From Candidatus Rifleibacteriota bacterium (GTDB taxonomy: Bacteria > Muiribacteriota > Ozemobacteria > Ozemobacterales > Ozemobacteraceae): a stretch of 64,000 nt of DNA. Position 1 is the first letter of the stretch; every line of letters begins with the position of its first letter. Under the pieces are notes generated by a model. That model ran no database searches, was not told where the DNA came from, and was given only the letters and a program-made list of their open reading frames with translations. The stretch is taken from assembly GCA_012517355.1 (NCBI GenBank), contig JAAYVD010000023.1, positions 62,001 to 126,000 of the forward strand, written 5' to 3'. The position numbers and the translations under genes are program-made. Below are positions 4,781-40,950 of this stretch, piece after piece.

Positions 4781-7402
4781 GTGCGACAGCAGGAACCGCC
4801 CCCCACCTCAGGTGCCGGTGCCGGCCACGACCGACACGAGGTCGGCCATACCCCTTGGCCGCCACGGATGGCCCCACGAAACGCCCGTTTCGCGGCCCGC
4901 CAAGGGGCCCACCGACCGGGGCGCCCGTTTCCGCGCCGCACCGCCGGCTTCCTGCTGCTGGTCATCATCACCATCATCCTGGCGATGGCCATCCTCATCT
5001 TCGCCCTGTCGTCGCACAAGAGCGGCGCCATCGAGCAGCTCGCCCGCACCGTCGACCAGAACCGCCTCGCCATCCTCGCCCAGTCGGGCAACAACGAGAT
5101 GGTGGCCTTCATCAAGGACAACGCCAACAACCTCGGGTCGACCTACGTGTTCAACAAATTCCGGGAGGTCTTCACCGCGGCCACACCCCCGGCCCTGCCC
5201 AAGACCATCCGCCTCTACCCGCAGGGCACCTCGTCCGAATACTGCCCGCAGGAAACCCAGAAGATCGCCCAGGACGCGGGCTACAACATCCGGATCGTCA
5301 GCAAGGCAGACCTCGTCTTGTTCGGGGCTTCCGAGGTCGATGACATGCGCGCCTGGCAGGGCTATCTCGAGGTGGTCTCCCGGGCTTCCCATGCCGACCG
5401 GCCCGACAACATGGTCGAAATCAAGGAACGCCGCGACGTCAAGCTCGTCGACCTGCGCCACTTCTTCGACCAGTACGTCTTCTTCTGCAAGAACTACATG
5501 CCCGACTACAACCATCCCCGCAAGCGGCTCATCCTCAAGGGGGTCAAGACCCCGAGTTTCGCCAAGGGATGCTATTCCCGGGCGTATTTCGGCAACCGCT
5601 GTTATCCCGACAACAAGGAGTTCCCCGACGGCGAGGGCCGGCTCTGGTTCGACGCCTCCTACAACGAACAGAAAGATCTCCTGGGCCCCCTGGTCAAGGT
5701 GGGAAACCGCGTGTCCTTCCCCACCAGCCCCGAAGACTACCTCTACTGGGCGAACGTCGCCACCTTCAGCTTCATCAAGGGCCCGCTCGATACCCCCGAC
5801 TTCTACCGGGTCGAGGCGGCCAAGCACGTCTTCGAGACCATCGTCAACGCGGCGGCCGAACGGAAATGGCCGGTCACCAAGTTCGACCGCGGCAAGGCCC
5901 TTTGGGAAAAGGCCAGAACCTCGATGGGCAGTAACATCAACGACAAGTCCGCCGCCTACAAGATCTGCGAGGATTTCACGGGCAACGACATCGCCAACGC
6001 CACCGCCCGCAATTACGGGGCCTGCGCCGGCTTCCGCCAGGTGGTGAAGACCTGTTTCGAAAAATGGCGCGTCCAGTGGGGATACACCGACGCCGAATCG
6101 GTCTGGAAGGTCAAGGAGCGCGATCTGAGCGCCCTGCCCCAACCGAAGGAATGGGTCAAGAACCTCCAGTACGGTGGCCTGGCCTCGGAAACCTACGAAA
6201 TCGACGGCCAGAAGATGGGCGCCTATTTCTACGAATACCTGAAAGACGCCTCCGGCGATCTTCCCAACAAGGAACGCTGCCGCGTCGGCATCATGGCGCA
6301 GGTGTTCGGCACCCCCTCCGACCGCCGGCCCCTCCTGATCGAGGGCCGCGCCTACCTGCGATTCTTCAAGATTGCGTTCCTCGACGATTTCACGACTGAC
6401 TTCGAAACCCTGACCGACCTCAAAGCCCCGGAGTTCGCCGGCACCACCGTGGTCTTTCCCCCGGTCCCCGTCGATTTCCGCCGCCCCGAACCCGCCACCG
6501 CGGACAACAAGACCTTCCAGAACACCGACCTGGGCAACAACCTGTTGACCCACGCCAAGACCGAGACCCGAGAGCCGGCCGACCGCTCGTATCTCGCCCC
6601 CTACCTGGAAAAATACCTGATGAGCCGCGACATCTCCACCATCCCCCTCAACTGCCTGCTCGGCACCTCGATGCAGATCCCCGCCCCCGGCGGCGAGACC
6701 TCCTACGACCCCTGGAGCGGCGTCATCAACAACCCCTGCGCCGAATTCAACCCGAAAAGCGGCGACAAATACTACCGCTGCATCGACTGGACGATGCTCA
6801 GCCGCGACTACCAGACCGGCGCCGACTTCGTCGCCGACCGCGTCCAGGACGACGGCAGCAAAAAGGTCCTGTATCTCGACGGCGTCATGCTGATCCGCAA
6901 AGGCCCCCTCGACCTGTCGCAGGTCAGCCGGTTCGTCGGAAAAGGGCTGCTGTTCGTCGGCGAGGGCGATTGCTATCTGGGCACCCTCAAAAAAGCCGCC
7001 GCCGGCTCCTTCGGCGAGAACCATCTGCGCATCTACCTGCACGGGGGCGACTTCGAGATCCGCTCCTCCACCTCCGACGTCGAGATCGAGGCGTCCCTCA
7101 CCGCCCTCACCTACAAGGGGAAGAACCCGCCCAACCCGGGCGCGGCCGAGAACCAGGGCAACCTGTACTGCAACGGCAAGAATGTCACCATTTTCGGCAA
7201 CCTCATCCTCGACTACCTCCAGCTCGAATGGGGGTCCCGCGGCCTCCCCATCGACGGCACCCTGACCGTCGAGCACGACCCGCTCATCTTCAATCCCGAA
7301 TCGCCGACCACCAGCGGAGGCCCCAAGCAGGACCCCTACCGCGTCAGCATCGGCGAAGTCCGCACCCTCTACAGCATGAACGCCGGGGAAAGGAGCTTCT
7401 GA
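4781..7402 (+). CDS. Very large PilX-like type IV pilus minor subunit/assembly protein
   Basis: N-terminal RRTAGFLLLVIITIILAMAILIFALSSHKSGAIEQLARTVDQNR followed by a ~800-aa domain. Start is GTG 4781 or ATG 4868. Followed by prepilin-like genes. Confidence 0.7.
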   Translation: MRQQEPPPTSGAGAGHDRHEVGHTPWPPRMAPRNARFAARQGAHRPGRPFPRRTAGFLLLVIITIILAMAILIFALSSHKSGAIEQLARTVDQNRLAILAQSGNNEMVAFIKDNANNLGSTYVFNKFREVFTAATPPALPKTIRLYPQGTSSEYCPQETQKIAQDAGYNIRIVSKADLVLFGASEVDDMRAWQGYLEVVSRASHADRPDNMVEIKERRDVKLVDLRHFFDQYVFFCKNYMPDYNHPRKRLILKGVKTPSFAKGCYSRAYFGNRCYPDNKEFPDGEGRLWFDASYNEQKDLLGPLVKVGNRVSFPTSPEDYLYWANVATFSFIKGPLDTPDFYRVEAAKHVFETIVNAAAERKWPVTKFDRGKALWEKARTSMGSNINDKSAAYKICEDFTGNDIANATARNYGACAGFRQVVKTCFEKWRVQWGYTDAESVWKVKERDLSALPQPKEWVKNLQYGGLASETYEIDGQKMGAYFYEYLKDASGDLPNKERCRVGIMAQVFGTPSDRRPLLIEGRAYLRFFKIAFLDDFTTDFETLTDLKAPEFAGTTVVFPPVPVDFRRPEPATADNKTFQNTDLGNNLLTHAKTETREPADRSYLAPYLEKYLMSRDISTIPLNCLLGTSMQIPAPGGETSYDPWSGVINNPCAEFNPKSGDKYYRCIDWTMLSRDYQTGADFVADRVQDDGSKKVLYLDGVMLIRKGPLDLSQVSRFVGKGLLFVGEGDCYLGTLKKAAAGSFGENHLRIYLHGGDFEIRSSTSDVEIEASLTALTYKGKNPPNPGAAENQGNLYCNGKNVTIFGNLILDYLQLEWGSRGLPIDGTLTVEHDPLIFNPESPTTSGGPKQDPYRVSIGEVRTLYSMNAGERSF

Positions 7403-9071: not shown

Positions 9072-9953
9072 ATGAAAACCATCCGCAAATCGGTCGCCTG
9101 GATCCTGATGGGCCTGTTGATCATCAACCCCCTGGTTTTTGAAGCCGTTGCCTGGGCCGAGGATTCGGCCACCACCGCATCCGGCACCGAGGATGCCACC
9201 GCCAGCGCCGACAAGGGCGCCGCCGATACCGCCGCGGCCAGCGACAAGCTGAATTCCACCAAGAACGCCAAGACCAACTCCTTCATGAGCAGCGGCACCA
9301 AGAACAAGATCAAGGATGCCAACAAGCAGCTCAACACGGCGAAAGACCAGGTCAACGATGTCAAGGGCAGCGCCAAGGACACCGCCGACTCGGTCAAGGG
9401 CATTGCTGACGCCGCCTCCGGCAAGGATGACTCCACCTTCTCCAAGCTGACCAAGGTCCAGGCCGCCGTCCAGAAGGCCCTGATCAAGGTCGGACAGCTC
9501 CTCCAGAAGATCGGCCAGTTGCTCAAGACCGTCGGCCAGGCCCTCATGGCCATCGGCCAGGTCCTCTCCGGCATTCCCTGGACCGCCGCCATCGGCGCCG
9601 CCCTCATCAAGGTCGGCAAGGTCCTGGTCACCGTCGGCACCATGCTCGATACGGTCGGCAAGGCCATCGAGAAGGTCGGACAGGTGGCCGGCAAGGCAGA
9701 CATGAACTTCAAGGACGCCCTGAGCGGCATCGTCACCGCCGCCAAGGACGGCTGGAAGGAAGGCCAGACCAAGGCCGACGCCATGGAAAAGGAAACCAAG
9801 GAGAAATACGGCCAGGATTCCTCCTCCTCCACCGACACCAGCACCGCCGCCGATGATGCCACCTCCGACGACAGCGCGAACGACGCCGGCGACGAATCCG
9901 ACGACCGCCCCGCCCAGGATTCGGACGACGCGGACGCCACCGCCGACGAGTAA
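9072..9953 (+). CDS. Secreted protein with tandem Gly-containing heptads and acidic C-terminal tail
   Basis: Signal peptide, then ALIKVGQ LLQKIGQ LLKTVGQ ALMAIGQ ... ALIKVGK VLVTVGT MLDTVGK AIEKVGQ; D/S/A-rich tail. Confidence 0.8.
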   Translation: MKTIRKSVAWILMGLLIINPLVFEAVAWAEDSATTASGTEDATASADKGAADTAAASDKLNSTKNAKTNSFMSSGTKNKIKDANKQLNTAKDQVNDVKGSAKDTADSVKGIADAASGKDDSTFSKLTKVQAAVQKALIKVGQLLQKIGQLLKTVGQALMAIGQVLSGIPWTAAIGAALIKVGKVLVTVGTMLDTVGKAIEKVGQVAGKADMNFKDALSGIVTAAKDGWKEGQTKADAMEKETKEKYGQDSSSSTDTSTAADDATSDDSANDAGDESDDRPAQDSDDADATADE

Positions 9954-10010: not shown

Positions 10011-10264
10011 CCGTCTGAACGGGGTTTCGGCCAGGAACCGCGACGGTTCCGGAAATACCCGTCAGCCACCTTCCGGCAGGTCCCTGGTCACGGATGAGTT
10101 TTCCGGGGGGTGGCAGACATTCCCGCTTGGCGCCGGCACCTGGAACAGGGGTCCTTGCCGCTGATGATCGTTGATGGCGCTGATACCGTGCCGCCCTCAT
10201 TTCGCGAACAGCCGGCTCCATCCGCCGCGGCCCGTTTTCCACCCGGTGCTGCCAAAATCAACAA

Positions 10265-10425
10265 TGATCCGCATGAAGGCTTTCCGAAGGGGCTTTGCCC
10301 CTTCACCCCACCAGGGCCGATGGCCCTGGACCCTTTCTGCTGGCGGGGGGAACGCTGACGCGTTCACCTCGCGGAAGCTCCGCTTCGCGGTTCGTTAGCC
10401 CTGGACCGGACGGTAGAAAATCAAA
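10265..10425. repeat. Multi-hairpin interspersed repeat A, copy 1
   Basis: ~91% identical by hand count, without indels, to 16521..16681; contains GAAGGGGC-TTT-GCCCCTTC and CCAGGGCC-GAT-GGCCCTGG hairpins. Confidence 0.9.
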
Positions 10426-10473: not shown

Positions 10474-10556
10474 AGAAGGCTTCCCCCCTTCCACCTCGGA
10501 TGGCGGTGCGAAACCTCCGTTTTGCGCAACGCAAGGGGGCCAACCCTTCCCGTGGC
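10474..10556 (-). repeat. 84-bp repeat family B, dispersed copy (inverted relative to the 33.1-kb array)
   Basis: gaaggcttcccccct-tccacctcggatggcggtgcgaaacctccgttttgcgcaacgcaagggggccaacc matches the reverse complement of the 33.1-kb unit. Confidence 0.65.
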
Positions 10557-16248: not shown

Positions 16249-16520
16249 TTCGTGCCCCCCGGGCCGAGAATTCCCGCCTCGCGGAAGGATGGCCCGGCCG
16301 AGATTGTAGCGCACCCTCCCCCCGGGGTCAAAACCGCGCGGGGTCCACGGACCAGAGGGGAAGGCGGCCGGCCGGCCCCGACACTCCTGGGATCGGCCGG
16401 GGGAACGCCCCTGACATCCCGGGGAGGCAGGCAGCCCCCGGGTTCGCCGGGGGTTGGGCTTCCCCGACCCCGCCCGGAACCCGCCACCTGGAGTGCGGTC
16501 CGGTGCGGAAAAAAAGACCA

Positions 16521-16681
16521 TGATCCGCACAAAGGCTTGCCGAAGGGGCGTTGCCCCTTCACCCCACCAGGGCCAATGGCCCTGGACCCTTTCTGCTGGC
16601 GAGATGAACGCTGACGCATTCACCTCGCGGGAGCTCCGCTTCGCGGTCCGTCAGCCCTGAAGCGGATGGAAGAAAAAATAA
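16521..16681. repeat. Multi-hairpin interspersed repeat A, copy 2
   Basis: Same length as copy 1; hairpins GAAGGGGC-GTT-GCCCCTTC and CCAGGGCC-AAT-GGCCCTGG; abuts rnpB 3' end. Confidence 0.9.
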
Positions 16682-17057
16682 GGCAGACCGGCCTGTAAGC
16701 CGGGTTCTGTGCCCCGTGAGGGGCGTCGGTCATCTATCTGGGATCACGGTTACCCGTGACCTCGAGCGACCAACCCGGGGGAATTGGAACGGGCCACTCC
16801 GTCCCCCTGTTAGGTCTTGCTCCAGACGGGGTTTTCCAGAACCTTCCGTCACCGGAAGGCCGGTGCGCTCTTACCGCACCATTTCACCCTTGCCTGTGTT
16901 CTTGCGAACCATCGGCGGTGTCTTTTCTGTTGCACTTTCCGTCCCCAGGGGATTCCTCCCCTGAAGCCTGGGCGTTACCCAGCGTCCTGCCCTGTGGAGC
17001 CCGGACTTTCCTCATCTTCCCCGAGGGGGGAAGACGCGACCGACCGGCCGGCCTGCC
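16682..17057 (-). ncRNA. rnpB: RNase P RNA, bacterial type
   Basis: Minus strand contains GAGGAAAGTCCGGGCTCCACAGGGCAGG and ACAGAACCCGGCTTA. 5' GGCAGGCCGG pairs with 3' CCGGTCTGCC as P1. Confidence 0.95.
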
Positions 17058-30330: not shown

Positions 30331-30404
30331 ACGATTCTCCTTCGCCATGGGCTTTCCCATTTCTACCATGCTTCGGGCCCGGAGGAAACCCTCCCGGACG
30401 CGCC

Positions 30405-30680
30405 CCGGAAATTCTCACTCATCGTTCCGAAGCTTTTCTGATGAACAGGGATTTCCGCAGGCCTGTGCCCACTCAGCAAGTCAGACCAGAACAACCCGGA
30501 GAACCGCTTCAGCAGCCATGGTGAGAATTGCTGGACGCACCCCAGGAATTCCCACGCATCGATCCGAAGCTTTTCCGATGAACAGGGATTTTCGCAGGCC
30601 TTGTCCCCATCGATACGTCAAGGCGAAGCAGCCAGGAAATCCTCTGCAGAGATCCTGGCGCGAATGGCTGGGCGCGCCCA
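30405..30680. repeat. Diverged tandem repeat C, two copies offset by 137 bp
   Basis: tcgttccgaagcttttctgatgaacagggatttccgcaggcc (30422) versus tcgatccgaagcttttccgatgaacagggattttcgcaggcc (30559); downstream blocks keep the 137-bp offset. Confidence 0.8.
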
Positions 30681-33109: not shown

Positions 33110-33370
33110 CCGTTGGCGGTGCGCCAAGCGCGGATTTCATGCACCCACAGTGAGCCCTTCCCCTTCGTGTCGGTCGGCCCCTTTTCGATGCGCGAAACGG
33201 GCATCTCACGCCGCCATCCGTGGCGAAAAGGAGGAAGCCCTTCCAACGCCGTGCCGGTCGGCCACCTTGCGATGCGCGAAGCGGGCTTTTCGCGCCGCCC
33301 TCCGTGGAGAAAAGGGGAGAGCGTTTCCGACGTCGTGGCGGTCGGGTCTGCGCCAACCCAGCGTCCGGCC
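33110..33370. repeat. 84-bp repeat family B, tandem array (two full units 33173..33256 and 33257..33340 plus degenerate flanks)
   Basis: gtcgg unit starts at 33173, 33257 and 33341; aligned sequence ...gatgcgcgaa(a/g)cgggc...cgccgcc(a/c)tccgtgg.gaaaagg... Confidence 0.85.
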
Positions 33371-40876: not shown

Positions 40877-40950
40877 TTCTTTCGGAGCACCAAATCGGCG
40901 TTGCGCGCCGTCATCCATGGGGGCAAAGGGGCCCTTCCGGCGTGAAGTCG
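40877..40950 (+). repeat. 84-bp repeat family B, degenerate dispersed copy
   Basis: gcaccaaatcggcgttgcgcgccgtcatccatgggggcaaaggggcccttccggcg aligns with the 33.1-kb unit. Confidence 0.5.

What the first reader, a model, noticed from the sequence alone, without database searches (positions are those of the whole stretch)
10265..10425. Interspersed multi-hairpin repeat with substitutions sitting in hairpin loops
Seen directly: 10265..10425 and 16521..16681 align without indels over the 134-bp core, with about 12 differences by hand count. The element is a series of hairpins: GAAGGGGC-TTT/GTT-GCCCCTTC, CCAGGGCC-GAT/AAT-GGCCCTGG, GAACGC-TGAC-GCGTTC, and GCGGA/G-AGC-TCCGC. In the first two hairpins the only change is in the 3-nt loop. 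In the last one the change gives a G:U-compatible pair. The third stem is disrupted in copy 2. Overall this suggests selection on structure rather than on a protein. Both copies also have open reading frames, but identity is spread over more than one frame. Inference: a REP/BIME-like or structured-RNA element, possibly with many genomic copies.
Basis: partly seen in the sequence, partly recalled or inferred. Interest (0 to 1): 0.62.

Follow-up and report, generated by a model that had tools for sequence, protein, structure and literature searches.

The report
Jumping repeat with shared hairpin core
The two matching stretches are copies of a roughly 155-letter mobile DNA element present about 100 times in this uncultured bacterium (a relative of Candidatus Ozemobacter); its folded middle part also occurs, with compensating changes, in distant bacterial phyla and is not in the RNA family database searched.

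Summary
The two window copies (10262-10416, 16518-16672) belong to a ~155-bp family with about 100 copies in the 7.1-Mb genome. Copies have sharp edges, imperfect inverted-repeat ends (C-R-A-Y-GATCCG) and 8-bp A/T-rich target-site duplications (18 of 90 perfect; shuffles average 0.6, maximum 4). They lie between genes in either orientation. So this is a MITE-like non-autonomous transposon, not a REP/BIME. The best-conserved part is the core (hairpin 1, unpaired ACCCCA, hairpin 2), not the ends. That core occurs, with hairpin 2 replaced but still complementary, in Ruminococcus, other Clostridia, Selenomonadaceae, Acetobacteraceae, Bradyrhizobiaceae and Ca. Ozemobacter. In Ruminococcus it again sits in elements with 8-bp A/T-rich duplications but different end sequences; elsewhere it often directly follows a stop codon. 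Nothing in Rfam matches it. No transposase partner was proven; an ISL3-family IS is a candidate. Most likely: a transposon carrying a widespread folded module that acts as single-stranded RNA or DNA. The module's function is inferred, not shown.

The parts
10262..10416 (+). Copy 1 of the mobile element (155 bp), CAATGATCCG...GGACGGTAG
   Evidence: Edges from ~94 aligned copies; family and identities
10254..10261 (.). Left 8-bp target-site duplication of copy 1 (AAAATCAA)
10417..10424 (.). Right 8-bp target-site duplication of copy 1 (AAAATCAA)
10286..10304 (+). Hairpin 1 GAAGGGGC-TTT-GCCCCTTC (core)
   Evidence: 2.5% stem divergence
10305..10310 (+). Conserved unpaired linker ACCCCA (core)
   Evidence: 1.8% divergence, as conserved as the stems
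10311..10329 (+). Hairpin 2 CCAGGGCC-GAT-GGCCCTGG (core); stem replaced by other complementary stems in other taxa
10343..10372 (+). Hairpin 3 (13-bp stem, TGAC loop); carries most double changes within the genome; one broken pair in this copy
10371..10383 (+). Hairpin 4 GCGGA-AGC-TCCGC
16518..16672 (+). Copy 2 of the mobile element (155 bp)
16510..16517 (.). Left target-site duplication of copy 2 (AAAAAAGA)
16673..16680 (.). Right target-site duplication of copy 2 (AAAAAATA, 7 of 8); its last base coincides with the 3' end of the RNase P RNA gene (16680-17055, - strand)
16542..16585 (+). Core of copy 2: hairpin 1 (loop GTT), linker ACCCCA, hairpin 2 (loop AAT)
16599..16639 (+). Hairpins 3 (broken pair) and 4 (A-to-G change giving G:U) of copy 2

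Best explanation
The element is a MITE-like, non-autonomous DNA transposon of about 155 bp. An unidentified transposase acting in trans recognises its imperfect terminal inverted repeats (older copies: CGATGATCCG at the left, CGACGATCCG at the right) and inserts it into short A/T tracts between genes, duplicating 8 bp. Internally it carries a chain of hairpins. Hairpin 1, the unpaired linker ACCCCA and hairpin 2 form a module that exists well beyond this family and is conserved as a folded single strand. Shown: copy number, edges, 8-bp duplications, inverted ends, intergenic placement, preserved pairing, and a core more conserved than the ends. Inferred: mobilisation by a DDE transposase (an ISL3-family IS is the best candidate in this genome), and that the module works as RNA (a 3'-UTR, transcript-end or insulation element) or as single-stranded DNA.
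For: About 100 copies. Conservation starts and stops abruptly at both edges. 8-bp duplications: mean identity 0.66 at 8 bp against 0.33 for shuffled pairs, 18 perfect 8-mers against at most 4 in 300 shuffles. Inverted ends: 47% identity in register against 13-30% out of register; older-copy consensus 9 of 10 identical. No copy of 85 lies fully inside a predicted gene; 14 forward and 17 reverse among co-directional neighbours. Covariation within the genome: 56 double-change cells against 18 in shuffles, 0 of 500; across phyla 77 against 19, 0 of 500. Core divergence 1.6-2.5% against 9-12% at the ends; right end lost but core kept in 50 sites, the reverse in 1. Same architecture in Ruminococcus: 99 end sites against 0 in the reversed control, 22 of 26 end-to-end elements carry the core, target duplications again 8 bp and A/T-rich.
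Against: No autonomous element with these ends was found; the extra end-like sites examined read as coding sequence, and the IS4-type and ISL3-type transposase genes examined do not carry the same ends. The young right end (CTACCGTCCGG) is a poor partner of the left end. A core more conserved than the ends is unusual for a MITE. Most copies were fetched by the core, so the divergence contrast is biased in favour of the core (partly answered; about 4 of the 50 core-only hits are cut by contig ends, and older subfamilies have a different right-end consensus).
Confidence: 0.78

Rival explanations
1. The element is primarily a structured RNA (3'-UTR or transcript-end element) selected for host gene regulation; mobility is only how it spreads.
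For: In other taxa the forward strand often starts right after a stop codon: 5 of 9 copies in genome G062 have hairpin 1 8-24 nt after the stop of a long open frame, and about 10 of 27 non-Ruminococcus loci lie within about 10 nt of one, against 1 in reverse. In G169 the element closes with a stem followed by Ts. Stems covary across phyla.
Against: In the window's genome there is no orientation bias (14 to 17), no terminator-like site around copy 1, and insertion sites are not enriched for a hairpin upstream of the T tract (26 of 50).
Confidence: 0.3
2. The core acts as single-stranded DNA during transposition or replication (hairpins recognised by a transposase or host factor), so structure is kept by selection on mobility alone.
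For: The core is found inside transposon-like elements with different ends in two phyla; patchy distribution, often at high copy (13 of 287 genomes, 9 of 248 genera); no orientation bias in G000.
Against: 8-bp duplications point to a double-strand cut-and-paste type enzyme that reads the ends, not internal hairpins; chains after stop codons in other taxa showed no such ends in what was read.
Confidence: 0.3
3. REP/BIME or REPIN element mobilised by a RAYT (Y1) transposase.
For: High copy, intergenic, palindromic; one Y1_Tnp gene exists in the genome; the right end finishes in GTAG.
Against: Length, inverted ends and 8-bp duplications; GTAG lies at the outer 3' edge, not beside a single palindrome; no copy next to the Y1_Tnp gene.
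Confidence: 0.04
4. A small protein-coding repeat.
For: Open frames run through some copies, as expected at high G+C.
Against: No frame is open in more than 17 of 56 copies; changes keep pairing, and hairpin 2 is swapped whole between taxa.
Confidence: 0.02

Closest known systems
Bacterial MITEs (Correia/NEMIS, ERIC, RUP; reviewed in PMC2229807)
   Same: Short, non-coding, dispersed, terminal inverted repeats, target-site duplications, stable stem-loops in the transcript
   Different: The review's table lists TA at the termini for these three families; here 8-bp A/T-rich duplications, a chain of independent hairpins, and a core shared across phyla and better conserved than the ends
CIR elements of Caulobacter and Brucella (PMC2229807)
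   Same: Two hairpin arms joined by a linker
   Different: Other sequence; target duplication not established there; their GANTC motif is absent from the core here
REP/BIME/REPIN and GTAG- or CGTC-tagged repeats (PMC3733652, PMC3116915)
   Same: Many intergenic palindromes, plausibly transcribed
   Different: 20-40 bp, single tagged palindrome, single-strand RAYT mechanism for the GTAG class; not this anatomy
Intrastrand triplex motif TM/PIT (PMC4666352)
   Same: G/C-rich hairpin plus G-rich flank, intergenic, in many bacteria, function unknown
   Different: The published E. coli consensus has no match in the window, and the flank here mirrors the stem at only 4 of 7 positions by direct reading
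ISL3-family insertion sequences
   Same: 8-bp duplications (general knowledge of the family); an ISL3 end in this genome starts GGTTCATCCG, has A/T-rich flanks and shares T-N-ATCCG with the element's end
   Different: Ends start GG, not C; the similarity is too short to prove the link

Membership tests
MITE (non-autonomous DNA transposon) | Short, non-coding, many dispersed copies with sharp edges | tested here: met
MITE (non-autonomous DNA transposon) | Target-site duplication of fixed length | tested here: met
   8 bp; same length in Ruminococcus elements
MITE (non-autonomous DNA transposon) | Terminal inverted repeats | tested here: met
   Imperfect
MITE (non-autonomous DNA transposon) | Autonomous partner with the same ends | tested here: inconclusive
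   None found; draft assembly, one ISL3 candidate
REP/BIME | 20-40 nt palindrome tagged with GTAG or CGTC at one end | tested here: not met
   155 bp with TIRs and 8-bp duplications
REP/BIME | RAYT gene flanked by copies | tested here: not met
   One Y1_Tnp gene, no copy beside it
Known Rfam RNA family | Match at the gathering score | tested here: not met
   No match on the element in the window, nor on core-bearing loci of other taxa
TM/PIT triplex motif (PMC4666352) | CCCTCNCCC-N3-6-GGGNGAGGG-N3-GGGNGAGGG | tested here: not met
   0 matches in the window
ISL3-derived MITE | Ends homologous to an ISL3-family IS of the same genome | tested here: inconclusive
   Short shared motif only; left end of the IS not recovered

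The most novel reading that the evidence does not exclude
Hairpin 1 - ACCCCA - hairpin 2 is an undescribed, very widely distributed folded module with its own recognised function (at RNA or single-stranded DNA level), repeatedly captured by transposons with different ends in different phyla and also used directly downstream of stop codons in others.
Probability: 0.4. Interest if true: 0.78.

Novelty: new variant of a known kind. Interest (0 to 1): 0.55.

Why it matters
A transposon whose internal fold is better conserved than its ends, with the same fold turning up in Ozemobacter (Riflebacteria), Clostridia and Alphaproteobacteria, suggests a shared machine that reads it. The core gives a precise handle (a covariance model and a 25-base pattern) for finding copies in cultivable hosts, where both mobility and effects on transcripts can be tested.

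Tried and rejected
REP/BIME: rejected on anatomy and transposase context. Protein-coding repeat: rejected. Insertion into terminator T tracts as the target rule: no support (26 of 50), although copy 2 abuts the RNase P RNA gene. Autonomous partner sought by right end, left-end 12-mer (the hits examined were coding chance), and IS4-type, IS1595-type and ISL3-type transposases: none proven. Autonomous Ruminococcus partner by paired ends at 0.6-3.2 kb: none convincing. Plasmids and phages (blastn) and viral contigs (exact core pattern): no match. Literature search by core sequence: nothing relevant in the 20 listed of 90 hits. Stop-codon adjacency within G000 by open frames alone was discarded as unreliable at this G+C. 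Target duplications in G169: T-rich on both sides, inconclusive.

Full report
Observation. The hairpins are present, and the strand folds about 4 standard deviations better than dinucleotide shuffles, as RNA or as DNA.

Copy number. A search of the window's own assembly (7.1 Mb, 184 contigs) found 40 copies at 92-100% identity before its scoring cap. A 20-base core pattern gave 115 sites against 5 for the reversed control. After fetching loci, about 97 distinct copies were compared.

Edges and target duplications. Conservation begins and ends abruptly. Taking the element as C...G, 155 bp, the flanking 8-mers match each other: mean identity 0.66 against 0.33 for shuffled pairs, with 18 perfect 8-mers against a shuffle maximum of 4; 7 and 9 bp do worse. 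Many duplications are complex, such as AAAATCAA (window copy 1), TCTTTGAT, AAATGAAT and AAATTCTT, so A/T richness alone does not explain them. The ends are imperfect inverted repeats, clearest in old copies: CGATGATCCG and CGACGATCCG.

Context. No copy of 85 lies fully inside a predicted gene. 32 are between convergent genes, 22 between divergent ones, and co-directional ones split 14 to 17 by orientation. Copy 2's right duplication touches the 3' end of the RNase P RNA gene.

Structure. On 85 sequences, 95.9% of cells in the four stems form standard pairs, against 37-51% for slid structures; there are 56 double-change cells against 18 in shuffles, never reached in 500. One subfamily difference swaps a U-A for a G-C pair in hairpin 3. 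The core (hairpin 1 stem, linker, hairpin 2 stem) diverges 1.6-2.5% from consensus, the ends 9-12%. Since most copies were fetched by the core, I also started from the right end: of 51 real right-end hits, 50 have an intact core, while only 50 of 100 core hits have an intact right end. Some of that asymmetry comes from contig ends and from older subfamilies with another right-end consensus.

Identity of the genome. A relative in the same genus, G001, has a contig of 262,746 bases carrying the core where QOQW01000004.1 of Candidatus Ozemobacter sibiricus, also 262,746 bases, has it. The window is therefore placed in that genus by inference; that the genus belongs to Riflebacteria is general knowledge.

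Other taxa. The core pattern hits Ruminococcus and other Clostridia, Selenomonadaceae, Acetobacteraceae, Rhodospirillales, Bradyrhizobiaceae and Devosia assemblies (nearly all metagenome bins, so single hits may be misbinned) and Ca. Ozemobacter. In an alignment of 35 sequences, six of them from the window's genus, hairpin 2 is replaced but stays complementary: 77 double-change cells against 19, covariation 0.372 against 0.088, 0 of 500. Hairpin 1 and the linker were fixed by the search pattern, so their constancy there is not evidence. A covariance model found the core in 13 of 287 genomes and 9 of 248 genera, patchily and often in many copies.

Ruminococcus. There the core sits in elements of about 150-240 bp (one 355) bounded by CYACCTGWGCGGTTG inverted repeats: 99 end sites in one genome against 0 in the control, 22 of 26 end-to-end elements contain the core, and the flanking 8-mers agree best (0.78) at one register. 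So the same anatomy recurs with different ends.

After stop codons. In G062, five of nine copies start 8-24 nt after the stop of a long open frame on the forward strand. Several Clostridia and Acetobacteraceae loci look alike. In G169 similarity extends over about 100 bases, beyond the core, and the element ends in a closing stem followed by Ts. This makes an RNA role plausible in those hosts but does not show it.

Mobiliser. No element with matching ends and a transposase was found. An ISL3-family IS, seen at four contig ends with identical 3' sequence, has A/T-rich flanks and in one case sits in the left target duplication of a copy; its end shares T-N-ATCCG with ours. This is a lead only.

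Known families. No Rfam match, no match in phages, plasmids or viral contigs, and no relevant paper found by sequence among the hits listed. Bacterial MITEs (PMC2229807) are the right class; REPs (PMC3733652) and triplex motifs (PMC4666352) are not.

Noticed in passing
window 4866-4883, 10498-10515, 33202-33219, 33286-33303, 40899-40916; also L154 and L365: A second dispersed repeat (GGATGGCGGCGCGAAACG...CGTTTCGC...AGGGGCC): 5 sites in the window with up to 3 mismatches against 0.2 expected
   Followed up: partly
L363, L365, L366, L368 (G000 contigs C77, C153, C6, C14): Identical 3' end (about 127-140 bp) of an ISL3-family insertion sequence at four contig ends, implying a multi-copy IS collapsed in assembly
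   Followed up: partly
window 9510-9696: 21-bp periodic repeats inside the open frame 9072-9953, likely a repetitive protein segment
   Followed up: no
window 30396-30669: Tandem pair of 137-bp units, 73% identical
   Followed up: no
L390-L400 (genome G169): About 120-bp elements with the core plus a closing stem CCCCGTG/CACGGGG followed by Ts; T-rich on both flanks
   Followed up: partly
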